Part shown: piece after piece, positions 1-53,772 of the stretch
Numbering within the stretch: position 1 is the stretch's first letter
Layout of the letters: the number at the start of each line of letters is the position of its first letter
DNA from: Lepraria neglecta
Taxonomy: Eukaryota; Ascomycota; Lecanoromycetes; Lecanorales; Stereocaulaceae
NCBI GenBank assembly: GCA_033220425.1
Contig: CM065648.1
Location: 3,844,001-3,908,000, forward strand
Reading direction: 5' to 3'
Length of the DNA: 64,000 nucleotides
Position numbers and translations under genes: made by a program
The notes under the pieces: model-generated
What the model was told of the DNA's origin: nothing
The model's input: the letters and a program-made list of their open reading frames with translations, nothing else
Database searches by the model: none

Positions 1-1808
1 AGAAGTAATTAGGGATTACTATAACAACCCTTTATAAGGTTACCTAGGAGTATCTAAAATAGTAGAACTCCTAGGACGAGGATACGCGGCGCCGAAGCTT
101 CGAGCGCGTGTTAAATAATATATTAAAGAATATATCGAGTACTAGTAGAATAAGGCTATACGATACGCTAAGTACGGACAAATATAGTTTACTTCTATAC
201 TAGAGTTACTATAGGATAATATTATAATAGACTTCGTAGTTAAACTACTACCTTTAAAAGATCCAGCTACGTAGGATACCTTCAACTCGATTATAGTTAT
301 TATAGATAAACTTATAAAATATATAATTATAATACCTTTCAAGGAGATATATAAGGTAGACTAGTTAGCCTTTATACTACTCGATAAGCTAATAAGGGAT
401 TATAGTATACTAAAGTCGATAATATCCGATAGAGATAAACTATTTACTTCTAACTACTAGAGAACGCTAATAGTAGTAATTAGAACTAAACTTCGGATAT
501 TAATAGTATATTACCTATAGACTAATAGATAGACAGAACGTGCAAATCAAACAATAGAAGTATACCTAAGATATTATATGAACCGGAAGTAGGATAACTA
601 GGTTTTACTACTTCTAATAGTATAACTAGCGTATAATAATAAGCGGTTAGATATAACCGGACTAACCCTATTCTTTACTAACTATAGAAAGAATATAAAT
701 ATATTTCTATAACTAAGGGAGGGACCTAATATAGAAAGAGCCTTAGTTAAGGTAGAAGAGCTAAAGAATTTATATAGGGATATACAAAGGTCTATTAAGA
801 GCTCTAATAAGAAGTTAAAGGGATAGATTAATAAGAAAAGAAAGAATATTCCTTAGCTAAAAGAGGGGGATAAAGTATACCTCCTAATAAAAAATATAAG
901 GATAATAAGACTAAGTAAGAAACTAGATTATATTAAGGTTAGACTATTCTTGATTAAACGGTTAAAAGGACCAGTTAACTATAAACTCTAATTACTACCT
1001 GACGCCAAAGTATATCCGGTATTCTATATCTTACTCTTAGAGCTAGCGGACTCTAATATACCTCTCTAAGAAATATTTTACTATAACGTTAAGGAAGAAA
1101 TAGAGTTCGAGGTTAAAAGGATTCTAAATCAGGTTGATTAGAAATATCTAGTTAAATAGAAAGGGTACGACGATACCGAAAACACCTGGGAACCCCTTAA
1201 GAACCTCCGGAACTACCAGGACCTTCTATAGAAGTTCCGGGAACGATCGGGAAGGAGGACCAATCGGTTCCGGCTAGGAAGCCAAATTGTTCGGACGAGA
1301 CGTTAAATATCCAATTATTAGGAATACTTGGGATAGACCGCTAGTCTTCTTCTAACTCCTTAATATTCTATATCTCTTAGTCTATAATCTTCCGCTTTTT
1401 ATTTTCAAGATATTTATACTATATCTAAAGGCGTATTAGCATAGTCTAAAGACATATAGATTCCTCTATTAATTTTCGTATATAATCCTCGAGCTCTTCG
1501 CGCGTGTTTTTTAACTATAACTATACTTCCTTTTATTCCGTCTTAATATAATATATTTTAAGGGGTAATACTATAAGGTCGTATTTCCTACTGCTGCCTA
1601 TATAGTTAGAATACCTATCGGACTCTGTACCTATCAGGTACTATTTGCCGCTGGCAATATATTAGGAGTATAGCCGTATAACAACTTCGTTTAGCTTACT
1701 AGCCAATACTGTTCAGCGGACGGTCGGTTTATCTAAACGTTTAGTACGTCGGGGTGGTATAAAGGATGGATAGTTTCTCGGGACGAGAAATCTGGGAGAG
1801 GGAGCTAA

Positions 1809-2317
1809 TGTTACGATCAGGAAACATGATTAGGGATACGCTTATGGAGCGTAGCGCCTATTATGGTTCGAGTTAACGAGTCGGTGTCCGACTCGGACAG
1901 ACCCTGAAGGCTTGGCATGTTAAGCGATGAGTGTAGTGGTTACAATGAGCGCAGATGCGATTAGTGCGATCAGTGCGATCAGGAAGGCTTGGCATATTAA
2001 GCGATAAGCGCAGTAGTCGTAATGAGCGTAGATGCGATCAGTGCGATCAGTGCGATCAAGAATGCTTGGCATGGATTTCGTATGTCTATATATGCGGAGC
2101 ACTGCTCACCACTTGGAGCATCGTGCTCAACTTGCTATTCAATTGTCTACTACATGCGATAGATCTCTTAGGCTAGGCACTAAACATATATCATCTAATT
2201 ATATACCAGACCCGCTTAGCATCACTTGAAGCCTGCTTCATACTCTTGTTAGGTTGCACCTCCATCCCTATTGAGAATCAATCCATAGAACTACCGCACG
2301 CAACGTGGTTCGTAACA
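1809..2317 (+). repeat. LTR of the Ty3/gypsy relic (509 bp)
   Basis: Starts TGTTACGATC and ends TTCGTAACA, the TG...CA ends of an LTR. Related copies lie at 3566-4030 and 4208-4634 in the opposite orientation. Flanking bases (GCTAA on the left, CTTAG on the right) do not form a target-site duplication, so this is not a simple solo LTR. It contains a 77-bp tandem repeat. Confidence 0.8.
1909..2072. repeat. 77-bp tandem repeat inside the LTR, about 2.1 copies
   Basis: Two units, 1909-1985 and 1986-2062, each begin GGCTTGGCAT and end with runs of a 9-bp motif (AGTGCGATC). A third start follows at 2063. The units differ mainly by C/T and G/A transitions. The short open frames here are low-complexity products of the repeat, not genes. 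Confidence 0.8.
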
Positions 2318-3565
2318 CTTAGCTTCTAATATACTAAGGGCTTCTTCCTACTCTAGATCTATTTTATCCTCTTCCTAATCCTATTTAGATTCTTCTTCTT
2401 AAGCCTTACTAGTATCTTTAGTATTTAGGTCTTCCTTATATTATTCCCTGATATATATATTAAATTTCCTTATAAAATTATTATCGCCGTTTTCGGATTC
2501 TTTATTAAGTTCTTCTTATATTATCCTATTATACTAGGAACTAATATCTTCTTCAACTTTATCCTATACTAGTAGAATCTCCTTAGGCGTACCGTCTATA
2601 TTATTCTAGGTTTATACCTTCTCTAGTATATTTAGTTATAGTTAATATACTATATTTTTTAACTTATAATCTCTAGTAAAGTAGCCCGGTTTACTATAGC
2701 TATAATACTTTAGTATTTTCTTGCCCCCTTACTACTTCTTGCCCCTAGCTAGCCCTCTAAAGGCCTATCTACCTTTCTTCTCCGTAAAGTCTAATTCTAT
2801 TAGTATATATCTATAAGGGTCGCGTTCCTTATATCCTAGGTAGTAACTCTTCGATTTAGTAAAAAAGCTTAAGCGTCCTATTCCGCCGACTCCTCTATTA
2901 TACCTTTTTTCTATAGTCCTTTCGAATAGCTTATTATTAATTTTAATTACTTCTTCGATTAACTTATTAAGGGTATTAATAATAATCTCTAACTTTATAA
3001 GCTTATCTTTAATATTATCCTTAAGACCTCTTTAGTATATAGTTATTAATATATTATCGTCCTAGTTAGTCTTTACTATATATTACTAAAATTAAGTTAA
3101 GTATTCTAATATAGATTTCTTCTAGGTTATATACTAGATAGTTTATATTACTATATTGACTTCGTTTAACGGACTAAATATATAATAGATTTCGAGTCTA
3201 AATATAGCTATACTCTCTATCTATTACTTGATTTCGCTATCCTTATTATTATCTTCTATATACTTCTTTAGGAATAGATTAACCTACTTTTAGGCTCTTC
3301 TATATAAGTAAGTAATAGTAAAGGTAGGATATCGTTATATAGATATAAGATCCCCCTAGAACTTCAGATATAATAATACCTAGGATAGCTATCCCTCGAG
3401 CTTATCTCTTTCTCTATAGTATAAGTCGGGCTAGGCTATCTTAATATATCTACTAAGTCCTTTGTTAATAGTTAGGCGTTATTATCTACTTCCTCCTCCT
3501 AAGGAGCTTAGGGTAGGTACTCTCGAGTCTCTTAGTATAGTACTTATCCTTAAGGGTACTTAAAG
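2318..3565 (-). mobile_element. Ty3/gypsy gag remnant, inverted relative to the left relic
   Basis: Fossil. Read on the minus strand, this AT-rich block keeps a gag-like layout, including a decayed CCHC zinc-knuckle near 2660-2700 (Lys-Pro-Gly core). The 5' leader side faces the LTR at 3566-4030. The block is broken many times. It abuts the LTR of the left relic at 2317, so two copies are joined tail to tail, probably by nested insertion or rearrangement. Confidence 0.65.
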
Positions 3566-4030
3566 TATTACGAACTACGTTACGTATAGTAGTCGTAGTA
3601 TAGATTAATTCTTACTAGAATAGGGGTATAATAGAGTAAGAGTATAAAGTAGGCTTTAAGTAATACTAAGCGGGTCTAGTATATAATCAGATGATATATA
3701 TTCAGTGCCTAGCCTAAGAGATCTATCGTATATAGTAGATACTAGATGAAAATAGAAGTAAGTTAAGCACGGTGCTCCAGGTGGTGAGCAAGTGCTCCTA
3801 TATATAGCAATAGGAAATCCCGCCAAGTATTCCATGATTGCATTAATCGTACTGCTATTATTACTATTATTATTCTTGATCGTATTGATCGTACTACTAT
3901 TATTACTATTATCGCTTAGTATACTAAGCCTTCAGGGTCTATCTGAGTCGGATACTAATTCGTCGACTCAAACTATAACGGGCGCTACGCTCCTTGAGCG
4001 CATCTCTAATCATGTTTCCTAATCGTAATA
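3566..4030 (-). repeat. Decayed gypsy LTR, inverted relative to 1809-2317
   Basis: Reads TATTACGAAC at the left and TAATCGTAATA at the right, the ends of the 1809-2317 LTR with transition changes, in the opposite orientation. It serves as the 5' LTR of the gag remnant to its left. Confidence 0.75.
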
Positions 4031-4634
4031 CTATCCTTCGAGCTTATCTCTCTCTCTATAGTATAAGTTAGGCTAGGCTATCTTAATATACCTACTGAGT
4101 CCTTCGTTAATAGTTGGGCGTTGTTATCCGCTTCCTCCTCCTAAGGAGCTTGGGGTAGGTGCCCTGGGGTCTCTTAGTATAGTATTTATCCTTGAGGGTG
4201 CTCAAAGTATTACGAACCGTGCGTACCGGTATCGTATATAGATTGATTCTTACTAGGATAGAGGTATAACCAACAAGAGTATAAAGTAGGCTTTAAGTGA
4301 TGCTAAGCGGGTCTGGTATATAATCAGATGATATATGTTTAGTGCCTAGCCTAAGAAATCTATCGTATATAGTACACAATGAATAGGAAGTTGAGCACGA
4401 TGCTCCGTACATATATAGCAATAGGAAATCTATACCAAGCCTTCATATTCAAACGAGTCGAATATCGATTCGTCTAAACCATGTCCGAGTCGAACGAGTC
4501 GAACATCGATTCGTCTGAACCATGTCCGAGTCGAACGAGTCGAACATCGATTCGTCTGAACCAGACCCTGCCAAGCTCATGCCCCCTCATGCGCCTGCAG
4601 CGCGTTCCTCCTGGCATGTTCTTGGCTCGTAACA
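4031..4634 (-). mobile_element. Third gypsy LTR (4208-4634) with a leader fragment (4031-4207)
   Basis: 4031-4207 repeats the leader seen at about 3386-3565 (shared CTCCTCCTAAGGAGCTT and GTCTCTTAGTATAGTA blocks). 4208-4634 is an LTR of a related subfamily, ending CTCGTAACA. The order leader-LTR-leader-LTR on one strand is a tandem copy, from unequal exchange or a nested insertion. Damage is milder than in the copy to its left, so it may be younger. Confidence 0.7.
4451..4563. repeat. 41-bp tandem repeat in the third LTR, about 2.7 copies
   Basis: The unit starts GAACGAGTCGAACATCGATT. Copies lie at 4451-4491, 4492-4532 and 4533-4563 (partial). This subfamily carries a 41-bp minisatellite where the 1809-2317 LTR carries a 77-bp one. 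Confidence 0.85.
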
Positions 4635-5057
4635 CTTGCCAGGAGCTTTTCTATCCGCTACCATTAAGGCTTTCCTCTACGCCGGTTATGCCACTATTAC
4701 GGCTGTCCCTCGCTCTAGAGTACCCTTCCGCCCTCCGCCAACCTTATAGCTAGGCTCCCATACGCTGTAGAACCATATATTAGCCTATAGCGTTGGTGGA
4801 TTAGTCTCGTCGACCTCGTCTTGGTAGCCTATAAGAATTCGGTATAGATCACGTGACTTTCATATATAGTAGCTAGTCCGCCGTATTAGGGTTTTTAGCT
4901 ATATTGGGTAAAGCGTTAGGGCTTTTTACGCTTGTCACCCTGGGCGGGCACGCCCTAGTACATATTAATATCCCCGCTAATATCTCACCAACATTTCATG
5001 TCCACGGTGCCAATTACTACACACCTGCTAAACCCGGCCATCGCCTGTCCAAAAGCC
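4635..5057. other. Intergenic, promoter side of the NLR gene
   Basis: No gene seen. The sequence returns from AT-rich relic to normal composition by about 4900. It must hold the promoter of the NLR gene that starts at 5058; no convincing TATA box was found. Confidence 0.5.
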
Positions 5058-8000
5058 ATGTAAGATAAACTCACGATGAGATAGTATAAAGTACTGATCG
5101 CATTCATAAGGTCAACTACGAATCTAGACGCAGCTCTGGATGAGTTTCATCAAAACCTATCTTCAGAACAGAAGATTGAATTTGAATCAGCTGCAAATCA
5201 GGCTCCATCTACGGAAGCGGTTGTGCTCCTCACTGACGAGATCATCAAGAAAAGTTCGACCCGCAAAAGCCATGTTCTTGCAGGTCGAATGCGCGTGGTG
5301 TTGGAGGCTGTCCAACAGTATAGTGCAATTGGAGACACTGTATCTTCAGTCAATCCAATAGCAGCGCTTGTTTGGAGTAGTGTCAAGATTGTGGTTCAGG
5401 TGATGGCTCCCTGAGTCTCCCGTATCGTCACTATTAATACATACCGTTCAGGCGGCCCTGAACTTCGCAAGTTATTTCGAGAAATTGTCCGAACGCTTCG
5501 CGCAATTGAGTACTTACTGTCCTCGGCTGAGCGCGTATGAGAAGCTGTTCAAGGAATCGATACGGCTTCAAACCTCGCTATCCGATTTCTATGCTGTTGT
5601 TGTCAAGTTTTGTACCAAAGCGCTGGAAGTTGTACAGGAGAAAGGTGCGAAGAGTATTATTGAGCGGATCCAAGGCCAAAGACTAAGACTCTATCTTCAC
5701 TGTAGGCATGAAACGATTTGTCAAGTCTCTCTGGAAAGATTTCAAGGGTGATTTTGGACAGCTGGAAGAGAATATTAGCGCGGCAAAAGGAGAAGTTGAC
5801 GAGGAGATACAGCTCGCATCTGAACAAAAGATACAACGAATTCACGAGCAGCTACAGATTGAATCCAAGCAGGCTCATATCCAACGCTCGCAGCAATTGA
5901 CTGAGATAAAGGAGAGCAGAGTTTTCCGCTCTCAGCAGACGCTTGCCCTAGCGGAAACCAAGGAGCTTCGGATCCAAAAGATCATCAAGGAAGAAGGTAT
6001 GACAAAACCAAACATTGTTGCTGGCCAGGCGTAGCTAATTGATTTCTATTCGTTCGTTGCAGATCGTACAAGAGTACGTTTGCGTCATCAGGTCTTCAGC
6101 TATGACTATACTCGAAGTCAAAGCAAGGCATGTAGGACGCGCTGCCAAGGCACTGCCGTCTGGCTCTTTGAGAGAGCAGAGTTCAAAGAATGGAATGAAG
6201 AGACGCTACCAATGTGCCTTTGGTGTTCGGGAACTAGTGGGTAGAATCCTTGCTGAACGCTGTCCCCGTTGCGTATTTCTGCCTGAGTAAGGCTGACTGG
6301 ATCACAGCTGGGTGTGGAAAGACAATCCTGACGTAAGGACACACGTTTATTGCGTTTTTGCGTCCCTCTCGTTCAGGATACCAAAGAGCCTTGCTAACAG
6401 CTAGCTTACATCAGAGGCCATGTGGTAGAGCAGGTGACGAAGAATCTGGCCGGCAAAAGAGACAAAGTCATCGCCTATTATTTCTTTGACTCTGCCCAAA
6501 AGGAATCCCTATCGCCCTGTACCTTTCTGCGGAGCATCTTACACCAGGTACTCCGCCCTGAATCACTAAATCCAACACTACAGCGACGCCTCGAAGCGAT
6601 CTTCATTGGGCCAAACGGTAGCAGAGAACCTGAGATTGACGAGTTGGAGACACTGGTTTTCGAGCTGTGTAATACACTGCAAAAAGTGATCATTCTTGTT
6701 GACGGCATAAACGAAATGGAGCAAGACGATCGAAGGCTGGTCTTGCGCTTCTTGAAGGCCATTCAACAAAGTCAAGCCGTCATCAAGCTGTTTGTTACCA
6801 GTCGACCTGAAGTGGATGTTCCCATTTTCTTCTGTGATGGCCAACTTACGCATGTCAACATTCGAGTTCATGATACTCGACTCGAGATTGACGATTTCAT
6901 CAATTCACGCGTGGAAAAGGAAGCAAAAGATGGCTCTCTTGTTGTCTGTGGGCCAGCTGTGATCGACAAAATCAAAACGGCTCTAAAAATGAAGGCTAGA
7001 GGAATGTACGATACCCATCTCATAGATCTTGCAAAATCTTCCAACAAATGAACTGACTGAGCCCACTAGGTTCCTTTGGATAGATCTGCAGGTCAAAGCA
7101 ATCTGCGACACTTGCGAGGACGATGAGACATCCGATCGAGTCCCAGAGGTGCTTGAAAAGCTTCCAGAGGGTATTATAGATATCTACTCGCAAGCTCTAC
7201 AAAGAGTGCTTCAGAAGCCTGATGAGCAGGTCGAAAGTGTTAAGAAGATATTCAAATGGGTTGTCTGCGCAAGACGGCCAATGACTATTAACGAGCTGCA
7301 TGACGCCTTAACAATCACAACAGGTCAGAAGTCCTGGAAGGAGCCTTCGCAGAAATTCCGCCCGTCAACAGTGAGCAAGCTATGTGGTAACCTTATCGTC
7401 TTCGATGATTTCGACAGCACATTTTCGCTAGCACACCACACTGTCCAAGCGTTCCTCAAGTCACCCCCGAAAACGCCCTCACTTGCCGAATTCAGTATGC
7501 AAGCCTGCAAAGCGGATCACTATTTGGGTGAGATATGTGTTACATATCTCGGTTTCACTGACTTTCAAAAGTCGCTCACAACCACTGGCGATTCTATGAA
7601 CCTACAATATCTGAACCGTCCAGTACTTTTGACCGCACACATGTTACCGGGGCTCAATTTTCTCAGGCTACAAAATTGGAACGAGCGCTTAAAGCGTCAT
7701 ACAGGCGGCCATAATTTCAACGCCGAGAATCAGCTAAGAACGATCAGAAGTACAGTTAATTCACCTACTATCAACTCCTCCTTTCAACTTCTAGAATACT
7801 GCAAGACTAATTGGTACCATCACTGCCACGCTTTTCCCTCTGAGGACACCAAGAGTGTACACAGTCTTAAGCAACTCTTGAAACAGCCATCGCTGCCTTT
7901 CTTATGGCAACCGTGGGGTTTATCCGATGATTTAGATCCGTTCCCTCACTGGCCAATGTTTACGTGGGCAGTACGCCAGGTTCATATACCTGTTTTACGG

Positions 8001-10241
8001 ATCTGGCAAGAACTCATCACAAAAAATGAAGCCGACGGTTCTTGGAAGCGTCTATGGTTTACCAGTGGGGACTCCTTGTTTTCCTCTGCTTGTACTATAG
8101 CAAATACCACGCAAATCGACCTTTTCTGTAACGGTCTGATAGGAGTGAGGCCAGCAATTGGACCATCACAACAACAATTACTGGATGGGATGGCAAGCGC
8201 CGCTGCTTTAGGGCATATAACAGTAATAGAGAGATTGCTCCAACAAAAGGCCGATGTCAATGCTGGTGCTGGATCTAATGGCAGAACGGCGCTTCAAGCA
8301 GCGGCTGGGGGTGGTCACCTAGCTGTAGTCGAAAGGCTGCTCCAACAAAAGGCCGATGTCAATGCTGCTGCTGAATATGATGGCAGAACGGCGCTTCAAG
8401 CGGCGGCTGGGGGTGGTCACCTAGCTGTAGTCGAAAGGCTGCTCCAACAAAAGGCCAATGTCAATGCTGCTGCTGGATCTCATGGCAGAACGGCGCTTCA
8501 AGCATCGGCGGGGGGTGGTCACCTAGCTGTAGTCGAAAGGCTGCTCCAACAAAAGGCCGATGTCAATGCTGCTGCTAGTGAATATCATGGCAGAACGGCG
8601 CTTCAAGCAGCGGCTGGGGGTGGTCATCTAGCTGTAGTCGAAAGGCTGCTCCAACAAAAGGCCGATGTCAATGCTGCTGCTGCTGCTGGATCTTATGGCA
8701 GAACGGTGCTTCAAGCAGCGGCGGGGGGTGGTCATCTAGCTGTAGTCGAAAGGCTGCTCCAACAAAAGGCCGATGTCAATGCTGCTGCTGCTAGATCTAA
8801 TGGCAGAACGGCGCTTCAGGCAGCGGCTGAGGGTGATCACCTAGCTGTAGTCGAAAGGCTGCTCCAACAAAAGGCCGATGTCAATGCTGCTGCTAGTGAA
8901 TATCATGGCAGAACGGCGCTTCAAGCGGCGGCTGGGGGTGGTCACCTAGCTGTAGTCGAAAGGCTGCTCCAACAAAAGGCCAATGTCAATGCTGCTGCTG
9001 CTGCTGGACCTAATGGCAGAACGGCGCTTCAAGCAGCGGCTAGGGGTGGTCATCTAGCTGTAGTCGAAAGGCTGCTCCAACAAAAGGCCGATGTCAATAC
9101 TGCTGCTGGACTTGATGGCAGAACGGCGCTTCAAGCAGCGGCTGAGGGTGGTCACCTAGCTGTAGTCGAAAGGCTGCTCCAACAAAAGGCCGATGTCAAT
9201 GCTGGTGCTGGGTCTAATGGCAGAACGGCGCTTCAAGCGGCGGCTGGGGGTGGTCATCTAGCTGTAGTCGAAAGGCTGCTCCAACAAAAGGCCAATGTCA
9301 ATGCTGCTGCTGGATATGATGGCAGAACGGCGCTTCAAGCAGCGGCTGAGGGTGGTCACCTAGCTGTAGTCGAAAGGCTGCTCCAACAAAAGGCCGATGT
9401 CAATGCTGCTGCTAGTGAATATCATGGCAGAACGGCGCTTCAAGCGGCGGCTGGGGGTGGTCACCTAGCTGTAGTCGAAAGGCTGCTCCAACAAAAGGCC
9501 GATGTCAATGCTGCTGCTAGTGAATATGATGGCAGAACGGCGCTTCAAGCAGCGGCTGGGGGTGGTCATCTAGCTGTAGTCGAAAGGCTGCTCCAACAAA
9601 AGGCCAATGTCAATGCTGCTGCTGCTGCTGGACCTAATGGCAGAACGGCGCTTCAAGCAGCGGCTGAGGGTGGTCATCTAGCTGTAGTCGAAAGGCTGCT
9701 CCAACAAAAGCCCGATGTCAATACTGCTGCTGGACTTGATGGCAGAACGGCGCTTCAAGCGGCGGCTGAGGGTGGTCATCTAGCTGTAGTCGAAAGGCTG
9801 CTCCAACAAAAGGCCGATGTCAATACTGCTGCTGGATCTTTTTATGGCGGAACGGCGCTTCAAGCAGCGGCTAGGGGTGGTCATCTAGCTGTAGTCGAAA
9901 GGCTGCTCCAACAAAAGGCCGATGTCAATGCTGCTGCTGGATCTAATGGCAGAACGGCGCTTCAAGCAGCGGCTGAGGGTGGTCACCTAGCTGTAGTCGA
10001 AAGGCTACTCCAACAAAAGGCCGATGTCAATGCTGCTGCTAGTGAATATGATGGCAGAACGGCGCTTCAAGCAGCGGCTGGGGGTGGTCATCTAGCTGTA
10101 GTCGAAAGGCTGCTCCAACAAAAGGCCAATGTCAATGCTGCTGCTGCTGCTGGATCTTATGGCAGAACGGCGCTTCAGGCAGCGGCTGAGGGTGGTCACC
10201 TAGCTGTAGTCGAGAGGCTCCGTATTGCAAGTGCTAGATAG
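5058..10241 (+). CDS. NACHT NLR with a homogenised ankyrin-repeat array
   Basis: Predicted 1578-residue STAND/NLR protein, the class used by fungi for non-self recognition and heterokaryon incompatibility. My exons are 5058-5059, 5111-5399, 5452-5644, 5706-5996, 6063-6236, 6308-6332, 6415-7005 and 7070-10241; all phases agree. Residues about 25-230 resemble the fungal DUF7708 N-terminal domain (AALVWSSVK; FVKSLWKDFKGDF). The NACHT Walker A (SGTTGCGKTIL, about 314-324) is built across an intron. Walker B is VIILVDGINEM and FVTSRP follows. A winged-helix-like region (FLWIDLQ onward) precedes an ankyrin array from about residue 928 to the end. The start codon is split by intron 1 (AT|G); otherwise there is no in-frame ATG near the N-terminal domain. 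The frame is open throughout, so the gene looks functional. The trigger and output are unknown. Confidence 0.85.
8286..10220 (+). repeat. Ankyrin-coding tandem array: 18 full units plus one truncated unit
   Basis: Units of 102-108 bp (34-36 residues) share the invariant core HLAVVERLLQQKA. They vary at a few sites: residue 8 (Gly/Glu/Arg), the Asp/Asn of xVN, and the hairpin linker (AGSNGR, AEYDGR, SEYHGR, AAAGPNGR, AGLDGR and others). A degenerate unit precedes the array. The last unit stops after HLAVVERL and the protein ends eight codons later including the stop. A three-unit block recurs: linkers SEYHGR, AAAGPNGR, AGLDGR in units 6-8 and SEYDGR, AAAGPNGR, AGLDGR in units 12-14, which points to block duplication. 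Confidence 0.95.
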
Positions 10242-11301
10242 TCGCTTGAAGAAGTTTGATATTTATAATCAGCTCCGACTTATTCACGATAGGTACATAC
10301 CTTAGCAACCCAGGAATCTGTCTATCAAAGCTAATTTAGAGCTCGTCGGAGCTAGAACAATATTTTTATATACTAACGTATATGTAAAGAGACTATCTCT
10401 ACTTACGAAATAAGATTCAGTAGAGGTATAGTGCTAGCAAAAGCTAAAGAAGTATTTTCCACTTCTAAATTAAGGCTAGATCTAGTAACCTTTATACCAA
10501 GATAAATAGATTATTATAGTTGTAAAATAAGAATCTTATCTTTTGCCACCGTCGTAACACTGAGGCAATCCCATACGCCAAAGCTCCCATCACCACCGGT
10601 CGCATAAGCTGGTGTAGCTACCCCACCGCCAGCAGCGCCAGCAGCGCCAGTATAGCCACTACGTCCCCGCCCCCGTCCTCAGTGTGTAGATCCACCTCTT
10701 GCTGTAGCTGCGCGCGAGCGCCCACCGCGGCCAGCGGGGGCGATTGCGCTAACCGAATTAGGTTTTAGGGCTAGGGTTTTGGCCCCCCGGAGCCGCCCCC
10801 GGGAGATTGTCGTTAGGGGGGTGCTACCAGGGTAGTCTTGGCAGCGCTAAGCCTACTTTAGGGGGGTGCATGCATAAAGTTGGGGGTGTGCGGGCATCAA
10901 ATAGCGGTGTGCATTGATCCTTTGCCTTGATAAAATCTCCATTTGTGGTATCCCTCTATGGTGGTTGCCTAGTGCAAGGCAACAGCCGAGACTACTGGCC
11001 CCGCCTACGGATTGACGAATTTATTTACATGAGAGAGCAAACTGCCCTAATTCTTTAAATCGCCCAGTTTCTCCCTCCTGCGCATTATGGCAGTATGGAA
11101 GCATACCAAAAAGGCCCAGCAACAGATTTCCCAATACTTTGTCTCTTATTTTGGATATCTCCGTTTGAGAACAACCAACACGAACCATATCCTTAATCTC
11201 GAAAGATCGAGGCTGACTCCTTTGGAGAAATAACTCCGCCGGTACTAGAAAGTATGAGTAGGCGGATCTGTAGGTGTTGGATGGTTTTAGCTCACCACTG
11301 T
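10242..11301. other. Intergenic
   Basis: 10242-10550 is AT-rich and without an open frame. 10560-10840 is an abrupt GC-rich island. Read on the minus strand it gives Arg-Gly and Gly-Ala-rich text (GRGRGRSGYTGAAGAAGG), which could be the relic of an RGG-type or gag-like frame, but it is too short to name. 10850-11300 shows no gene. Confidence 0.4.
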
Positions 11302-11655
11302 CTAAATATTAGCCTTGGCCTCCTTCTCCAGCTTATCCAAGACTCTTCGGGCCTCGGCCTCAGGATCCGCAGCCGCAGTATCGAAAGAGGCAGTGGCAAG
11401 TTTGGCATGAGTTCCCTGTTTCTTGAGCCAATCCTTCAAGGCGGTGCTCTTGGCCTGGGTGTTGACTTGTAGTACAACGTTGCGCTTAGTTTTAACTAAC
11501 TCGCCAGCGTCAATGCGCAGCTCATAGTCGGCATCGTTCTTCTGTGTGCGCGATGGCAGTATGCGGCCACCTGATGTATGCGAGGATTTGAATTTAGTTG
11601 CCACTTCGAAGTTGTTCTTGACCTTGGAGAAGAATTCCTGGAGGGCCTTGGACAT
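11302..11655 (-). CDS. Small conserved-looking basic protein, function unknown
   Basis: A single uninterrupted frame of 117 residues starting at an ATG at 11655. The product is hydrophilic and Lys-rich (MSKALQEFFSKVKNNFEV at the start), with no signal peptide or membrane segment and a helical Ala/Glu-rich C-terminus (EARRVLDKLEKEAKANI). I do not recognise a family. Balanced third-codon use and lack of low complexity favour a real gene. It sits downstream of the NLR in convergent orientation and 403 bp from the divergent kinase gene at 12059. Confidence 0.55.
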   Translation of the reverse strand: MSKALQEFFSKVKNNFEVATKFKSSHTSGGRILPSRTQKNDADYELRIDAGELVKTKRNVVLQVNTQAKSTALKDWLKKQGTHAKLATASFDTAAADPEAEARRVLDKLEKEAKANI

Positions 11656-17294: not shown

Positions 17295-19423
17295 CTAGTA
17301 ATCACCAGTGTCATAATCTGGTTCAGGTGCAAGGCTAGCGGGTGGGGACGGGCTGGCCGGCGGTAGAGGACTTGCTGAATACGCGGGACTCGCCGGGGGT
17401 TGATTATCATCGTCATCATCTGGTTGAGGCGCAAATGCAGAGCTTGCCGGCGCCGGAGGACTGGCTGACTGTGCAGGGCTCGGCGGGCCTTGATCGTTAC
17501 CAGGATCACTTTCAGCGGGAGGACTTGGTGGGCCTGAGTAACCGGCTGGGGGGCTTGGCGGCTGCCCGAAGGCGTAGGTTGTGTAGCCGGCGTCATCATC
17601 ACCATCGTCCGCTGGAAGGCTCGGTGGAGGCGAGCCATTGGGCGGACTTCCTGGTGCAGAGCCATTATCGAGATCGAGCTCTGGCGGGGGGCTAGATGGT
17701 CCGGATTCAACGTCAATGCCGAGTTCTGGGGGTGGGCTTGGTGGTGCAGAACCATCCTCTTCTGGCGGTGCGCTCGGTGGCGAACTACCTTGCCCTTCCT
17801 CATAATCGTTGTAAGCCATGGTACCCGCTGCACCAGCAACAGCCCCACCAACAGCACCCACTCCAGCTGCAGCTGCATCTTGCCCGACTTGCGAATTCTG
17901 CTGGCTTGGTGCAGCACCCCCAGCTGGTGTTCCGCTGCTCACAAAGTTTGCATATGAAGGCCCTCCATCGTCATAGTCAGTCCCATCGTAATAACTGCTT
18001 GCCAAGCCTTTCGATGCAGATTGTCCGGGAGCAGTCGACGCCGATGCAGCTGCAGGTGTTGGTATCGTTGACGAGGTTGTCTGAGCAGTCGGCGCCGATG
18101 CAGCTGCAGGTGTTGGTTTCGTTGACGAGGTTGTCTGAGCAGTCGGCGCCGATGCAGCTATAGGTGCTGGTTTCGTTGACGAGGCTGTCTGAGCAGTCGC
18201 TGGGGCTGCAGGAGCGCTTCCAACCCCCTTCTCGTCATTGATGCTGCTGCTGGTGCCCTCGTTTGCTGGCGGAGGCGGGCTCGCTGCACGCTTTTTGAAG
18301 GGTGATTTCCAGGACAACTTCGACGGTGCTTTTGGACGAGCCTCTTGGGCCACTGGCGTTGGCGCATGGTCTGGGGCTTTTGCTGCTGGATGATCTGCTG
18401 GAGCTGCTTTATGGGTCTCTGCAGGTGCTGTTTGCGCGGCTTCCTTGTGTGTAGCTTTTGTTGCATGGGCTGGAGCGTCATGATGGGCTCCGCCGGCAAC
18501 AGGACCCTTTACAACGGGTGTGTCATGTCCAGCAAGCTTCTCGAGGTAATCGCCTTTCTTTGCTTTCTCTATTGCCGAGTCTAAAACTTTCCGTCCCGCA
18601 TCCAGCGCGCCCAGCCAATTCTTTTTCTTGCTTTTGACTTCGACCGTGGCATGCTCAGAACCATGACCTGAAGCAACACCGCTGATTTGGTGACTACTTT
18701 CAACAACCGGTGCTGGTGTAGGTGGGTGGGCAGACGCAGTAGAAAATGCGATAGGGGGGTGAGGACTGCCAGAGACAGCAGTCTTGGTCTCCGAGTGGGC
18801 AGTGGGAGCGGGGGCGCTCTTGTTGTCTGGGGCCGCTGTCTTTGCTATGGGAGCGGCAGCTGCAGTTGCTGATTTTGGTGCAGGAGCTTTAGCATCTTTA
18901 CTGCTTCCAGCAACCGTGGTTGCCGCTATGTCTTGAGCATTTGACGTCGAAGGCTTGGCAGTCGTCTCTTTGCCAGAAACAGGTGTTGCTGAGCTAACAG
19001 CAGCTGTAGATTTGGGAGCAAGTTCCTTCGCAGGAGGCTTCGCCGGTGCGTTGGGGTTTGTCCATGATTTCTGCTTGGTTTCTTTGTTATACCAATACTT
19101 CTTGCCACTGGCTTCGTATTCCTTCCATGGCTGACTTGCTGCAGGGTCTTTACTAGGTGTGGCAGATTTTAAAGCGGCGGTTGCTGCGGGCTTTGATGTA
19201 GGGTCTTTGGCAGTGGATGTGGTCGGTGCGGTAGGATCTGTCCATGACTTCTGCTTCGTGTCCTTGTTGTACCAGTACTTTTTGCCTATGCTGGCTGTCA
19301 GAGCTTGATCGCTTTGAGGACCTAGCCTCGCCGTGGGAAATATTGCTCACCTGTTGATTCTAGCGTGTAGACTTTCCATGGTGAGCTTGCTGGTGCTGAA
19401 GTGTTCGCCAATTTTGAGGCCAT
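17295..19423 (-). CDS. Tandem WW-domain protein with long Pro/Ala/Ser-rich tail
   Basis: Predicted 687 residues, exons 19423-19351 and 19285-17295, with a 65-bp intron that splits the first WW domain. WW1 spans residues 16-42 (Trp16, Trp39, Pro42; GKKYWYNKDTKQKSWTDP). WW2 spans about 78-102 (Trp78, Trp99; GKKYWYNKETKQKSWTNP). Both keep the two Trp, the aromatic YWY patch and the final Pro, so both should bind Pro-rich ligands. The arrangement recalls Prp40-type splicing factors, but no FF domain follows. Instead comes a Lys-rich patch (KSKKKNWLGALDAGRKVLD) and about 350 residues of Pro/Ser/Asp-rich disorder with many SPPP motifs, which could be self-ligands for the WW domains. The gene is open throughout. 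Role unknown; scaffold or RNA-processing partner are guesses. Confidence 0.85.
18018..18200. repeat. 54-bp coding minisatellite in the WW-protein tail, about 3 copies
   Basis: Each unit encodes 18 residues (TAQTTSSTKPTPAAASAP and variants). The units are nearly identical at DNA level, so copy number is likely to vary between strains. Confidence 0.75.
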
Positions 19424-44972: not shown

Positions 44973-46264
44973 GTTGCTTGCTCTGGGCCTGAAAGCCAAG
45001 GCCAGGCAGTATTGACAAGATTAGTAGAAGCGATGAGGGATTATCCCAAGAGGCGTAATACTTCAGCAGGTACCGGGTATCTGGGGGTGCAAGGCACTTT
45101 CAAAAACGATGGAAAACGCCAATTGGTGGGGGCCGAATGCAAATTGACCGGCAGTAACAAATATTGAGATGATTACTGAAAGCAAATTTGGGAGAGTATA
45201 AGTATATGGCTTTCCTGAAAAGTTGAAGATTTAAAGCACTTTTTAGTAGAAAAAGAGAACGGGAAATGAGGCTAACAGGTAGCAGTCTGGAGAGCACGCA
45301 ACCATGTTCACCGGCGCGCGCTTACCCGTTTTCCATAAAACTGCCGATGGTGCGGGGTCTAGATCGTTGATTGTCGAGATAGCGAACATTGAGAAGCCTT
45401 GCAGGATTCGGCACTGAGGCAGCCATGGCGTGGTGGGGAGCCCCGCACTTCATTCAGCTCCTCCCTTCCATTACAATATCGGCCTTGATGGTCTGCCTTT
45501 TGCGATATTGACAACACAGCTGCCCGAAACCCAAGTCAGTGAATAGCACAGGTAAATGTGTTTTGGGACCATGTGCTCTGACTTCTGAGTAGAGCTTTAG
45601 GCTGAACACGACGCCGCACCAGGAACAGAGGACGTGAACATCAAGCGATGGACAAGGCATTGAATAAGCACTAGGGGAGTTGACGTGGCATGGCGAAAGT
45701 ACTAGCTTGACAGGTTCTGCATGAAGCTGATAGCATTTGATCGCCTTGATCGCCTTGATCGCCTCGTTTGCCTTGCTGCAGAGGGCCACAAGGCTGTTGT
45801 GGCTTGGGAGGGTCAGTGATCGGACTCCCATGCCATCTAGGCTTTGGAAGCCATCTTTGTGACAATTGTGTGAGGATGTTAAAGCGCATGAAGAATACAA
45901 AGTCGGAGAATCGCGAACTAAGTTCGTCCAGTGATGAAGAAGGAGAGTTGACATTATCCCCGAAATGGATCAAGGTCAGCAAGGGTCCTCGGCTCGCGCT
46001 TGGCAAAAAAGCACCCTTCGCGCGTCGCAAATCCACAGGTGCAGAATCCGGATTTTGCCACAGCTTCACTTCAAGCCAGACTACAGCAACGGAAACCGAG
46101 TCTCAGAACTTTCATGTCAAAGAAACGACCAAGTTGTTCCGTTCACACAGCAATACGTCCCAGCATGATTGCAAAGCGCAGTGGGCTACCGCCCTCGTTG
46201 CTCAGTAAGTGATGCGGCTTGGTTTTCTTGGAACTCTCCTTGCTGACTATCCACCAGAGAGCCG
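44973..46264. other. Intergenic between divergent genes
   Basis: No clear gene. An open plus-strand stretch (about 45768-46208, Ser-rich) might be a 5' exon or leader of the next gene, but no splice pair links it. A 9-bp microsatellite (GATCGCCTT x3) lies near 45739-45766. Confidence 0.35.
45739..45766. repeat. 9-bp microsatellite, three copies
   Basis: GATCGCCTT repeated three times, the last with one change. Similar 9-bp periodicity occurs in the gypsy LTR (AGTGCGATC), but the sequences are not clearly related. Confidence 0.6.
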
Positions 46265-49029
46265 ATGCAAAACTCCCTGACCAGCCTGCGAAGCGCCGTT
46301 GACGTATATGAGGCTCAAGCCAGCGCCCAAAAATGGGAAGATCTCTCTCTTGCCCAGGCAGATGTGACGGAGTTGAATAGGCTGGCCAAGGCTGCGTTGG
46401 AAAAGCAGCAGTCAAAGAGGGGCCCATTGCCGGGACTGGAGAGGTTCTCTACGGTTGCGCTGGAATACTCGAAGCTGCTTGATGTGATCATGAATCAATG
46501 TCCTGAGTACGTGAGCTTGGCTTGGGGAGTCACGAAACTCCTCCTTGTAGCCAACATCAACCACGCCAAGCTCAAGCAAAACGTGGAGACACATCTCATA
46601 TCTATTGGGGAGCGGCTCGGCTTGGTCAATCAACTCATATACTACTCGCCAACGGAGAAAGTTGTCGAGGCGGTGGCTTTGCTTTACGCGCACTTCTCCA
46701 AGTTTCTTGGAAAGGCCCTTCGATGTTACGCTAAAAGCAAGCTGGCTACAGTACTTGGCTCTTTTGTCTTCCCTTGGGAGTCCAAATTCCAAAACGTCGT
46801 TGATCGTATAGATGTGCAATTCCGACGGATACAGGACCTTGCCGGCGCCAGTCACTTTTCCGCGTAAGCACCCTTTCACGCTATCTCCGCGCCAAATGGA
46901 ACCTTTAAGGAGCATTTCAATCAACACAACGCCCACATAGCTGCCATCCAACCCCCTGAACTTGTCTTAGGACTTAATTGTTGACTTGATAAGGCGGACG
47001 CTGACTCGAAACCCTGCAGGACACTCCAAAATCAACACATCCTGCACTCAATCTGGCACTGCCAACAAGAAGATAGAGAGGTCGTTCAGCAAGAGCGCAC
47101 TGCTGAGCAGCTTCGCAACGAAATTAAAGAAGAAATGAAGCGCGAGATATTTGGTCTGTTGCAATCTTTCGACTCCAAGTGGGTGCAAAGATTCGACGAG
47201 TTCCTCTTGCAGCAAACCACACTTGTGAAGAGTAGGGACGAGACATGTGTATCAGAATTTGCTGACTCCTTCGCACAACTTGCTCTGCCCGTCTCGAAGC
47301 CAGACGTTTTTCTGGCAGACTTTGTTTCCAAACCGCAAGATCTTTCCGAGTTTCGCGATATCAACTTTCCCCAGCTTCGAAGCTTTGATGACAGGGAGAA
47401 GTACATCAGAGCAAGCGAGCGTCGTCTCAACGCTTCTGACTACCAACACAGCGTGACATTGCTTAGACATGCCGATATAAGAGCTTGGGTATGTAGGCTT
47501 CAGATTAATTCACTCCCAGTTGGCATCGTAAATGGAGTATTGGGAATGGGAAAAATGCTGAATCGGAGGTTTTACAGATGGATTCCGACGAATCAAGAAT
47601 GTTGTGGATCAATAGCCATCAATCCTCCCGAGCCGCAGATTGGACCTCTGTCTTAGCTACACACCTGATTGATCACTCGGCACACCTTGAGTATCTCACC
47701 AGGCTCCGCTGTTTTTGCCATGGACACTCGCCAGGAAACGCGGTCTCAACAGCGGCCATCGTCGTCCAAGCTCTTATCTTTCAGTCGCTGCTCCACCACC
47801 GTAAACGCTTCACGATGAGAAGCGTCAAATACACGCAGCGGCGCTTTCAGGAGGCAGAAGACGATGTAGAGGCCCTCTGGGCGTTGTTTCTGGAAATTTT
47901 GGCCACTGCGAAAGCTAAATGTCTCTGGATAATCATTGACCACGTCAACATGCTGCAGAAAGAATCAGGTCCTAGAGGACTAGAGGACGCGCTGACACTT
48001 TTGAAATTACTCAACGACCTGGCTGAAGCTCCTAACATGGTGGTGAAGATCCTTGTTACCGCTAGAGTTGGTGGACCAGCGGATTTTTCTACGGAAATTG
48101 CAGATACCTCAATACTGTCACCTCACCATTCTGTGATAAACGTTACTAGGGGTACGTATGTTTCCTAGAAGTACTCAGGCCGCCTCGGTACCGCAATCTA
48201 ACTCGCGTAATATGACTCGAGAGTAAAAAGCTTCCAATGTGTTGATTATTCAGTTCTTAATGTTGTCTTACGACTCGGAGTTTCTGTTGTTGAACCCTTA
48301 CTAACTTTGAATACACGATCAGGCCATCACCGATCCGAAGTTACGTGGTTAGCGAAATACTCAAGGAAACCCACTCGATTGCCTGACGCCGACCAGCATC
48401 TGGGTCTAGAAGCTACCCCTCTGGATGCTTCAGATATCGAAGCACTCCTCGCCGATTCTGATTCTGACGATGATGTTTTGGAAATGCAGGCTTCTAGCAA
48501 GCATTCTGAAAATAACGGAAATCAATCATCTGTTCTCATGCCAAAAGAGAAGAGGGGCGAATCTACGGATTCGGATTCCATGTCGTTCATGAATGAGGAT
48601 CCCTTGGAGAGTGACGACGACGAGCCGTGGGACTCGCCCTCAACGACGACAAAGAACACCCCCCATCAGCCCTGCTTCCTTGAGGACACACCGGATGACC
48701 CTGATAGCGATGAGGACTACTTCAATGTCAAACCAGGCGAAACCTTCAAGGAGAATATAGGCTGGAATCCGGACAACAGCTCGGAGGACGACTTTGACGA
48801 GAAGGCTGAGGAGGCTCCTCTGTCCCCACTTACACCTAGGATCGTGGTTGGTTCCTTCGATGATTCATTGACTTGCCACGCCGACAATTCGGCTTCCAGG
48901 GTAGAAGATGGTCCTAACAAAAGTGAAGAAGTGATGCCACAATCATCGTCGTCAACAGCTGTGACGGCAAAGATCCGTGTCAAGGACAATTTCCTAAGTG
49001 ATAGTGATAGCGACGGCGCTTTCATTTGA
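46265..49029 (+). CDS. DUF7708-like STAND-associated protein with acidic tail, no NACHT P-loop
   Basis: Predicted 782 residues; exons 46265-46863, 47020-47488, 47578-48151 and 48323-49029, with agreeing phases. Residues about 30-195 resemble the DUF7708 N-terminal domain of fungal NLR-type proteins (LLDVIMNQCPEYVSLAWGVTKLLL; VEAVALLYAHFSKFLGKAL). A coiled stretch follows (QQERTAEQLRNEIKEEMKRE), then a domain with AWMDSDESRMLWINSHQ, IVVQALIFQSLLHH and a Walker-B-like CLWIIIDHVNML, but no usable Walker A. The last 235 residues are acidic and disordered (DSDSDDD, ESDDDEPWDS, DSDSDGAF end). It may be a regulatory or degenerate relative of NLRs. The start at 46265 fits the family start; earlier exons cannot be excluded. 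Confidence 0.7.
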
Positions 49030-51523: not shown

Positions 51524-53595
51524 CTATATTGCTGCCCTTTTTTGCATTCCTTGTGTTGCAATAGTCTCCCGCCACTCCAAGACCCTCTCCTCCTCTCCAG
51601 CAACGGATCTCTGCATATCTAGAGTGGCTTGCGCTCGAGTAGTAAGCAGAGCTGTACGTCGTTGTTCGTCCTCGATCTCTGCGAAACGAGTCGCCTCGGC
51701 GTTCTGTCTTTCGTGTCTCCTTTCTAACTCCTTCAAATGAAGGCGAGCTCTTTCGCGTCTGCCCTCTGCGAATTCAGTTTCACGCTGAGCTTGTAAAGCT
51801 GCTCGGCGGTTCTCCTCTTCCATTCGTACACTTTCTTCTTCGACTAGCTGCTTTCGCACCATTTCAGCTTGCTTCAGCTCTTCCATGATCGAATCAGGAT
51901 AGCCGCATGCTCCAAGCGGCTGGCTGCAGCCCGCTATTTCGTCCCAGTGATGATCACTGCAAGCGAATGCCTTTAGGAGACGCACTGGCGGTCGTGTAGG
52001 ACATGAATTTCTGTCTCGCACTTCAAAAAGCGCACATACATAGTAAGGCTGTAGCAGTACCCATTGTCCATTCTTAGAATATTGACATCGTAATTGATGG
52101 AAGCACGCATGATCGGGTGAACATGGAGCAGCGACCTTGTCATTCTGAGAGCGGACCCATTGTCCAAAACTAAAAGAAGAACAGATTTCCCGTGTACCTG
52201 GAATCCGAGGTCTGTTGAGGCATTGCACAATACCTCTAGTGCGAGCTTAAGGTAAGCAGGATTAGTATCCGGATCAGCATGGCGGCATAACTCCCCGAGA
52301 GCAGTCCTCCCTTCATAGAACGTGGTTCCTGACCAGTCAATGTCAGCGCTAGAGTCGAGCAGAAGCTGAAGAGCAGGAACATATAACAGCCTTGCGGCGA
52401 CATGAAGAGATTCATCGTTGAGTGGTACCTTCCGATCAATCAAGGACTTCATATTCTCCACGTTTCCCTTAGAAGCCACATAATTCAAGGGCGTGCGGGA
52501 AAAGCTGTCCTCGGTTCTGAGATCATTATCTCTGTTCACGCAATCTAACACTGTGTGCAGAGAAGGAGTGATAGCTGCAATCATCGCAGCAGTGGTATAG
52601 CTCAGCAGTGATTTTACTTTCACTTGCCACAATGTCTTAAAAGAATCCCTAGTGTGCGCTGGTCAACTTCTCTGTCGTCTTGACAAAGACACCAAATCAG
52701 AGGCGAGACGCTCTCCACTCTGCATGCTGATTTCAGCTCCCATTGAAAACATGGGTCTGTTGTCATACCATTCTCCAGTAGCGTACGAAGCAATTTGGGT
52801 TTATTAGCGTGGTTGTGTAGTGTTCGGTAAAGGGGACCATCCTGAGGATCTCCATGAACGAAGTACATATTCCTCCATTCTGGCAGATGGCTAAGGAATA
52901 GCTTCACCATTCCCACCAGAGATTCCTCAGAATCCTTCGATTCAAAGATGGACATGAACGCCGAAGACAAGCCTTTCTTGCTTGGCAGTTAACTAAAACT
53001 TTCACAAAAATTGATGCGATTATTGATTATTGCGGGATGTAAAGCTCTGCCATCATGAGAGTTGATGTTGATTGAAGCGGGCTCAGGAAGTGCGCATGCG
53101 AATTGATCTGCGATGTAGGCCTCATCGGAAGCAAAAGCTTCTATTAATGCTTGATCCACAGCTGGACCGCTAGCACCACCATTGAGCAAGACTTTTGCAA
53201 ATTCGAGGAACCCTCGTGGATTTTGCCACCTCTCGCGCTTGCTCGTAACCTTGGTGAAGGTTTTTGAGTAGACTTCAGGATTATGTATTCTCTTCGCCAG
53301 GAGCCGGAGGGAATCAATATCATAAAGGTCTTTAGCGACCAAGATTGCATCTCCATCACCAAATATGCTCCATGCTGAATGAGATGAGCTAAAAGCTCAT
53401 GGTCTTGCTCTTTGATGGCTTGAATGAAAGCCCCATCTCTTGATTGAGATACCTGCACGTCCGCATGAGTCAAAAGCTTGATCATAGGTAATCTCAGAAG
53501 AGCACTACTTCCATAATGAAGCTGTGGTAGTCGCATTGCATTCTTGAAAGCTGAAGGAGCAACGTGATGCATCCTAGCCTCTTCGTTGAGCAAGA

Positions 53596-53758
53596 TGTTG
53601 CAATCTGGTTGCCTGATTGCTCTTTATGCGATTCCATTGTCTTTCTCCGCTAGTCACAGGCAGGATTGTTAGCAAATAGACAGAGATGTCTATTAGTACT
53701 CCATAGATTCCTGTCTCTTAGCTAGCCAGTCAATTGAGTGTTTTCTGCCATTGCAACA
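53596..53758 (+). repeat. Copia 5' LTR, 163 bp
   Basis: TGTTGCAATC...GCCATTGCAACA, directly followed by the primer-binding site. The first 43 bp recur inverted at 54381-54423 with two mismatches. Confidence 0.85.
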
Positions 53759-53772
53759 GGTTATGAGCCCGG
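53759..53772 (+). other. Copia primer-binding site (initiator Met half-tRNA)
   Basis: GGTTATGAGCCCGG is complementary to the anticodon stem-loop of eukaryotic initiator tRNA-Met (GGGCTCATAACC with anticodon CAT). It starts at the base after the LTR. Confidence 0.75.

What the first reader, a model, noticed from the sequence alone, without database searches (positions are those of the whole stretch)
8286..10220. NLR with a highly homogenised ankyrin array
Eighteen full units of 34-36 residues share a nearly invariant core and differ only at a few sites: residue 8, the Asp/Asn before VN, and the hairpin linker. Normal ankyrin proteins diverge between repeats, as the ankyrin pseudogene at 51.5-55.9 kb does. 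High internal conservation with clustered variable sites is the hallmark of fungal allorecognition NLRs, best known from the WD repeats of Podospora HET-E/D/R. This gene is a good candidate for a polymorphic recognition receptor using ankyrin fingers.
Basis: partly seen in the sequence, partly recalled or inferred. Interest (0 to 1): 0.85.

Follow-up and report, generated by a model that had tools for sequence, protein, structure and literature searches.

The report
Fungal immune receptor with near-identical repeats
A fungal immune-type receptor gene carries eighteen almost identical ankyrin repeats that vary mainly at likely contact points, a kind already described in fungi, but a block of the same repeats also sits inside a gene of a different kind on another chromosome.

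Summary
The window gene has 18 full ankyrin units of 34-36 residues plus a cut 19th (8280-10238); cores average 96% DNA identity. My 8-exon model (4998-10241) encodes DUF7708, NACHT (NPHP3_N) and a winged helix, then ankyrin repeats: a fungal NLR. NLRs with internally conserved ankyrin repeats are a published kind (Dyrka 2014, PMC4986451), so this is a new member. It is not exceptional at home: 9 of 15 other ankyrin loci fetched carry homogenised 99-102 bp arrays. Variation is concentrated: pN is 0.36 in the last three finger codons and 0.30 at codon 10, against a core pS of 0.06. Codon 10 (ankyrin position 13) is among the three most variable core columns in 8 of 9 arrays compared. New here: a 7.7-unit block, about 91% identical, lies in frame in a C7 gene with no detectable NACHT. 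The shared DNA ends inside units on both sides, so a multi-unit block was probably copied between unrelated genes. Allelic polymorphism and an allorecognition role could not be tested; no relative genome is held.

The parts
4998..10241 (+). NLR gene, my model: exons 4998-5059, 5111-5399, 5452-5644, 5706-5996, 6063-6236, 6308-6332, 6415-7005, 7070-10241; 1598 codons plus stop
   Evidence: GT..AG introns of 51-82 nt, one open frame after joining; no transcript evidence
5301..5830 (+). DUF7708 domain (residues 85-223), likely N-terminal effector or signalling part
   Evidence: Pfam PF24809 E 1.1e-15; effector role inferred
6149..6805 (+). NACHT-type NTPase (NPHP3_N, residues 308-475); P-loop GTTGCGKT at about 6230-6324 is split by an intron
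   Evidence: PF24883 E 1.8e-31, PF05729 NACHT E 1.8e-7; exon model
7239..7460 (+). winged helix domain (GPIID_WHD, residues 599-672)
   Evidence: PF22939 E 4.9e-12
7796..8189 (+). pre-ankyrin region, also found degraded at C1:4633.8k, C5:2289.1k and C7:475.6k
8190..8279 (+). degenerate N-terminal ankyrin unit and first finger
   Evidence: sequence
8280..10160 (+). 18 full ankyrin units of 34-36 residues; variable at codons 10, 26 and 29 and in the finger
10161..10241 (+). truncated 19th unit running into the stop
1..4000 (.). A+T-rich flank with RIP-like dinucleotide skew, upstream of the gene
   Evidence: composite RIP index 0.77-1.53 per kb against -1.13 to -1.28 in the array

Best explanation
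The gene is a fungal NLR (STAND NTPase) whose C-terminal ankyrin solenoid is a recognition surface under concerted evolution. Shown by sequence: DUF7708-NACHT-WHD-ankyrin architecture; near-identical unit cores; non-synonymous variation concentrated at one inner-helix position and in the finger loops; mixed combinations of sites among units; a block of the same units in a second gene in which no NACHT is detected. Inferred: units are gained, lost and reassorted by unequal crossing-over or gene conversion, and finger length also changes by slippage of GCT runs; purifying selection and exchange keep the core alike while contact residues diversify; ligand binding to the concave face and fingers lets the NACHT module oligomerise and engages the DUF7708 domain in a defence or cell-death response. 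A block of about seven units was copied ectopically between this NLR and the C7 gene. Whether the ligand is self-type (allorecognition) or foreign is open.
For: Architecture. Core identity 0.962. pN 0.359 (own pS 0.107) in the last three finger codons and pN 0.301 at codon 10, against core pS 0.059; core without codons 10, 26, 29: pN 0.010, pS 0.065; finger pN minus core pS 0.281, bootstrap interval 0.215-0.344. Position 13 is in the top three of 27 core columns in 8 of 9 homogenised arrays with different consensus. Four-gamete pattern in 9 of 21 site pairs. Second array about 91% identical in a gene without detectable NACHT. Same behaviour published for Podospora ankyrin NLRs.
Against: Over the whole core pN is below pS (0.031 against 0.059). 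Codons 10, 26 and 29 were chosen after seeing the data and the bootstrap ignores descent. Over all 27 columns the window's variability does not correlate with seven other arrays (Spearman -0.04, p 0.86). Slippage may inflate finger variation. No allelic data, expression or binding evidence; the exon model is mine.
Confidence: 0.7

Rival explanations
1. Recent neutral tandem amplification: the array expanded recently from one unit, so the cores are alike because they are young, and the variable sites are unconstrained surface positions plus a slippage-prone GCT tract, with no diversifying selection and no recognition role.
For: All 25 full C3 and C7 cores lack the synonymous GTG seen at one valine codon in the three degraded tail remnants (sequences), which fits one common ancestor unit; core pN is below pS overall; fingers start with GCT runs.
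Against: pN at codon 10 (0.301) and in the finger end (0.359) is several times the core pS (0.059), more than relaxed constraint alone should give. The same position is hypervariable in other arrays with different consensus. No two of the 18 full units are identical.
Confidence: 0.2
2. The two arrays became alike by repeated gene conversion between two genes that each had ankyrin repeats already, rather than by copying a block once into the C7 gene.
For: One distant relative of the C7 gene (L062) has divergent ankyrin repeats about 100 residues upstream of the shared domain. No fixed core differences and five polymorphic sites shared between the arrays.
Against: Similarity begins and ends inside units and nothing outside L042 4942-5761 matches. 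The two other relatives read (L063, L064) show no ankyrin match in the pieces scanned. Units group weakly by array (permutation p 0.037).
Confidence: 0.3
3. Assembly artefact: unit number or order is wrong, or the C7 array is a misjoin.
For: Arrays of this kind are not correctly rebuilt from Illumina assemblies (abstract passage of PMC12222747); the read type behind this assembly is unknown.
Against: All 18 full units are distinct and lie in one open frame. The C7 copy has private variants (LLEQK, HRAVV) and unrelated flanks in an open frame of 1367 aa. Both contigs are chromosome-sized, 5.3 and 4.7 Mb.
Confidence: 0.05

Closest known systems
Podospora anserina NACHT-ANK NLRs with high internal conservation (Pa_3_8560, Pa_2_8180; Dyrka et al. 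2014, PMC4986451; abstract, passages and section 17 seen)
   Same: NACHT followed by internally conserved ankyrin repeats; variable sites in inner helices and hairpin/loop; 7 to more than 16 units there, 18 here
   Different: N-terminal domain there is PNP_UDP, here DUF7708; repeat-number polymorphism shown there, untestable here; [quoted passage not shown]
Podospora HNWD family, het-d/het-e/het-r (PMC1805685, PMC2873952, PMC12222747; passages seen)
   Same: NACHT protein with near-identical repeats, hypervariable codons at the interaction surface, exchange of repeats within and between family members, RIP-mutated pseudogene members
   Different: WD40 repeats and proven incompatibility function; exchange reported among members of one NLR family
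Tuber melanosporum NACHT-ANK superfamily with 3-bp mini-exons (known to me here only from a passage of PMC9815663)
   Same: NACHT-ANK NLRs with a special way to diversify the repeat domain
   Different: alternative splicing of mini-exons there; array turnover here
Designed ankyrin repeat proteins (DARPins)
   Same: near-identical consensus repeats with variation confined to a paratope (passages of PMC8683736); DARPin constructs are among the best PDB sequence matches
   Different: engineered, 33-residue unit; here 34-36 with longer fingers. The exact list of randomised DARPin positions is recalled, not from a call

Membership tests
Fungal NLR (STAND) protein | central NACHT or NB-ARC NTPase with P-loop | tested here: met
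   NPHP3_N E 1.8e-31, NACHT E 1.8e-7, P-loop GTTGCGKT
Fungal NLR (STAND) protein | C-terminal superstructure-forming repeats (ANK, TPR or WD) | tested here: met
   Ank E 7.7e-130, 18 stretches
Fungal NLR (STAND) protein | N-terminal effector domain | tested here: inconclusive
   DUF7708 E 1.1e-15; its function is unknown; a NACHT_N match of exon 2 is far below cut-off (E 0.025)
NLR with high internal conservation (Dyrka 2014) | repeats over 85% identical over at least 100 aa | tested here: met
   mean amino-acid identity 0.93 over 27-residue cores of 18 units; threshold. The fingers are less alike and are outside that figure
NLR with high internal conservation (Dyrka 2014) | positive selection at concave-surface positions | tested here: inconclusive
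   pN above pS at codon 10 and finger end, but post hoc and no codon model; surface placement by alignment only
NLR with high internal conservation (Dyrka 2014) | repeat-number polymorphism between strains | not testable with these tools
   the genome has no relatives in the collection
HNWD (het-d/e/r) family | WD40 repeats | tested here: not met
   the repeats are ankyrin; no WD40 family among the matches
Fungal allorecognition (het) gene | alleles that trigger incompatibility between strains | not testable with these tools
   needs strains and crosses
C7 array host gene as an NLR | NACHT, NB-ARC or NPHP3_N domain | tested here: not met
   no NTPase family in the two scanned ORFs or after the array; nearest NPHP3_N match on C7 lies 19 kb downstream among the 150 candidates scored of 197

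The most novel reading that the evidence does not exclude
Ankyrin arrays of fungal NLRs can behave as transferable recognition cassettes: a ready-made, already diversified multi-unit block is copied in frame into a gene outside the NLR class, so that two otherwise unrelated proteins share one evolving binding surface. The C7 protein could be a decoy, co-receptor or second sensor for the same ligands. That a block is shared between genes of different architecture is well supported here; that both copies work and share ligands is untested.
Probability: 0.25. Interest if true: 0.75.

Novelty: new member of a known kind. Interest (0 to 1): 0.5.

Why it matters
The gene adds a DUF7708-NACHT-ANK receptor to the fungal NLRs that seem to evolve by repeat shuffling, and its main variable core position matches that of other ankyrin arrays in the same genome. 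The shared C7 block is the more useful result: in what I read on Podospora, exchange of repeats is reported or suggested among loci of the same kind, while here a block appears in a gene with no detectable NTPase. That makes it testable whether recognition specificities spread between genes as cassettes. A genome with at least 11 homogenised ankyrin arrays, many homogenised TPR arrays and RIP-like scars is also a good place to ask how such arrays escape RIP.

Tried and rejected
Tried without result: single-sequence AlphaFold of 593 residues (pLDDT 53.2, mostly spurious strands) was discarded. A second model of 204 residues from a shifted self-alignment of the window's own units shows the helix pairs expected of ankyrin repeats but only pLDDT 60.7, so no surface was mapped on it and no fold search was run. 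tRNA and Rfam scans of the window were empty. The scripts printed nothing because of a wrong pattern; the pattern found only 16 of the 18 window units, so its unit counts are not used. The script stopped after its first result (permutation p 0.037); the rest was redone. Similarity by lag gave no strong higher-order peak (0.81-0.88, mean 0.85), although TRF also fits a 420-bp period.

Rejected: RIP as the main source of variation inside the array. Of 8 C>T or G>A minor alleles in the cores, 3 lie in CpA/TpG context, and the array is not depleted in RIP targets. Rejected: the tail remnants as proof that the ancestor had only two units. They share a segment that also carries the end of a TPR array, so they are probably copies of one another, and they lack most of a finger, so the short state may be derived. 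Rejected: a TPR-ankyrin fusion gene there; at C1 and C7:475k the TPR frame ends in a stop about 150-340 bp before the ankyrin-tail remnant. Not used as support: the whole-column Spearman test, which was negative for the window.

Full report
Observation. The array is real. ORF 7026-10241 holds 18 full ankyrin units at 8280-10160, typically GRTALQAAA-x-GGHLAVVERLLQQKADVNA followed by a finger of 5-7 residues, and a cut 19th unit that runs into the stop. TRF gives 19 copies of period 102 at 90% matches, score 3094. Over 29-codon cores the mean DNA identity is 0.962, the minimum 0.931. All 18 full units differ at the DNA level; the longest exact internal repeats are 147 and 145 bp at lags of 522 and 519 bp, about five units.

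Gene. Joining exons at GT..AG introns of 51-82 nt gives an 8-exon CDS at 4998-10241, 1598 codons plus stop. Its first 700 residues match NPHP3_N (E 1.8e-31), DUF7708 (1.1e-15), the GPIID winged helix (4.9e-12) and NACHT (1.8e-7). The last exon matches ankyrin families (Ank E 7.7e-130). The P-loop is split by an intron. By its parts this is a fungal NLR. No transcript supports the model.

Variation. In the 18 cores pN is 0.031 and pS 0.059, so most of the core is conserved. Difference is concentrated. Codon 10 (G 10, E 6, R 2) has pN 0.301 and pS 0. The last three finger codons have pN 0.359 and pS 0.107. The core outside codons 10, 26 and 29 has pN 0.010 and pS 0.065. Codons 26 and 29 vary D/N (13/5) and A/T (15/3). 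Codons 10, 26 and 29 were picked after looking at the data, and the bootstrap over units ignores descent, so this supports diversifying selection without proving it. Nine of 21 pairs of core sites with a minor allele in two or more units show all four combinations, which points to exchange between units or recurrent mutation. Fingers start with GCT (Ala) codons in nearly all units and differ in length by whole codons; slippage is an inference.

Is the variable site special? By alignment to DARPins codon 10 is the first x of the ankyrin motif AAxxGH, position 13 in the usual numbering (numbering recalled). I compared 9 homogenised arrays of this genome (L051 and L052, whose frames hold stops, were left out). 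Two of the nine, the window and L042, share a consensus; the other seven differ. Position 13 was the most variable of 27 core columns in 5 of 9 arrays and in the top three in 8 of 9; the exception was L055. Against this, over all 27 columns the window's profile does not correlate with the mean of the seven other arrays (Spearman -0.04, p 0.86; for L042 0.31, p 0.12). Dyrka et al. report inner-helix and hairpin/loop locations, with one exception, for ankyrin NLRs of Podospora, and the same for one Chaetomium protein (section 17).

Genome context. The window lies in contig C3 of a 42-Mb, 11-contig assembly. That it is a fungus is my inference from gene structure and families; the assembly is unnamed. 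Of the 15 further ankyrin loci that I fetched (L047-L061, picked from the strong matches), 9 carry 99-102 bp arrays that TRF detects (L047, L049, L050, L051, L052, L054, L055, L057, L061), and L048 has longer-period repeats. With L042 and the window that makes 11 arrays. The choice was biased to strong matches, so 9 of 15 is not a genome rate. Comparing coordinates, an NPHP3_N match lies within about 3 kb upstream on the same strand for 8 of those 9; L054 has none among the matches found. The NPHP3_N search returned 150 matches, 150 of 197 candidates having been scored, split exons and broken copies included, so the NLR repertoire is large. TPR arrays of 126-bp period are homogenised at several loci too.

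The shared block. A DNA search of the genome with four units of the array found, besides the window array and short pieces, a second array at C7:1989441-1990258, in three pieces 90-94% identical. blastn of the gene region (4500-11500) against the locus gives 87-92.5% by register, and matches only within L042 4942-5761; the best-scoring pairing is 90.9% over 823 bp. It holds 7 full units plus partial ends inside an ORF of 1367 aa. That ORF and the ORF before it match no NTPase family, and the 994 aa after the array match no Pfam family at E 0.01. The 3' part has distant relatives in the genome. Of the three that I read, L062 carries divergent ankyrin repeats and C2H2-like motifs by eye, L064 has C2H2-like motifs by eye and no Pfam match, and L063 is broken and its scanned piece has no match. 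The N-terminal exon has two relatives. So the array sits in frame in another kind of gene. The shared DNA begins inside helix 2 of one unit and ends inside helix 1 of another.

Relation of the two arrays. Core identity is 0.962 within C3, 0.954 within C7 and 0.953 between. There is no fixed core difference. Of 14 polymorphic sites in C3 and 9 in C7, five are shared for the same bases, including GGG, GAG and AGG at codon 10 (hypergeometric p 0.005; recurrent mutation is not excluded). No core is identical between the arrays, units group weakly by array (permutation p 0.037), and C7 has private variants (LLEQK, HRAVV). The simplest reading is that a block of several already different units was copied between the genes, with or without later conversion. 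Direction is not settled; the native C-terminal unit in the NLR-tail remnants suggests NLR to C7.

Remnants and RIP. The window's pre-ankyrin region and first ankyrin parts recur, degraded, at C1:4633.8k, C5:2289.1k and C7:475.6k. All three lack most of the first finger (15 nt), and in the C1 and C7 copies the unit runs into a C-terminus like that of the window gene. Those on C1 and C7 lie behind a homogenised TPR array, and the C5 copy shares 1151 bp of that segment with C7. The C7:475k copy shows RIP-type change (C>T at CpA 11 of 20; G>A after T 11 of 17), the C5 copy less (6 of 18; 9 of 18), the C1 copy little (3 of 10; 3 of 9) and no excess of C>T and G>A over the reverse changes (19 against 22). 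The flank 1-4000 has composite RIP indices of 0.77-1.53, the array -1.13 to -1.28. DNA methylase (PF00145) matches lie at four places, so the usual enzyme class is present; I did not identify a RID gene. RIP-like decay has acted in this genome but not visibly on this array.

What it does. I read it as an intracellular receptor whose ankyrin solenoid is a shuffled binding surface. Ligand binding, oligomerisation and DUF7708 signalling are inferred from the family. Whether the ligand is conspecific cannot be told from one genome.

Literature. Dyrka 2014, PMC4986451 (abstract, passages, outline, section 17) describes the kind: 10% of annotated ANK repeats of fungal NLRs show high internal conservation. 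Only passages were seen of PMC12222747, PMC9815663, PMC2873952, PMC12258605 (one irrelevant passage), PMC8683736 and PMC1805685. The listings (titles and abstract starts) show no paper on an ankyrin array shared between an NLR and a gene without NACHT; most subscription papers are not in that library.

Noticed in passing
window 46247-48165 (+): A second NLR-like gene: DUF7708 (E 7.3e-40) in ORF 46247-46867 and NPHP3_N (E 1.4e-8) in ORF 47509-48168.
   Followed up: partly
window 51973-55611 (-) and 53831-54607 (+): Ankyrin matches in two minus-strand ORFs with a copia-type gag ORF on the plus strand between them: an ankyrin gene remnant, perhaps split by a retroelement.
   Followed up: partly
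window 1906-2072 and 4452-4563: Two short tandem repeats (77 bp and 41 bp) in or beside the A+T-rich RIP-like flank.
   Followed up: no
window 18029-18199: 54-bp tandem repeat (3.2 copies) overlapping an ORF with a WW domain at 17295-19346 (-).
   Followed up: no
L045 120-2736, L043 1874-3636 and further G000 loci: Homogenised TPR arrays of 126-bp period (20.8 and 14.0 copies); a DNA search with two units finds repeated matches at several other places on C1, C4, C5, C6, C7 and C8.
   Followed up: partly
L051 (C7:22.5k) and L052 (C9:21k): Two ankyrin arrays of 41 and 51 copies, 86.8% identical over 6.4 kb including flanks, with stops in the frames: a duplicated, decayed NLR near the contig start of C7 and on the small contig C9.
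   Followed up: partly
L054 (C1:3951k): A 14-copy homogenised ankyrin array (93% matches) with no NPHP3_N match nearby among those found; possibly another array outside the NLR class.
   Followed up: no
L046 (C8:2594.9k): A broken fragment 92% identical to window 7295-7577, a different part of the NLR body from that kept by the other remnants.
   Followed up: no
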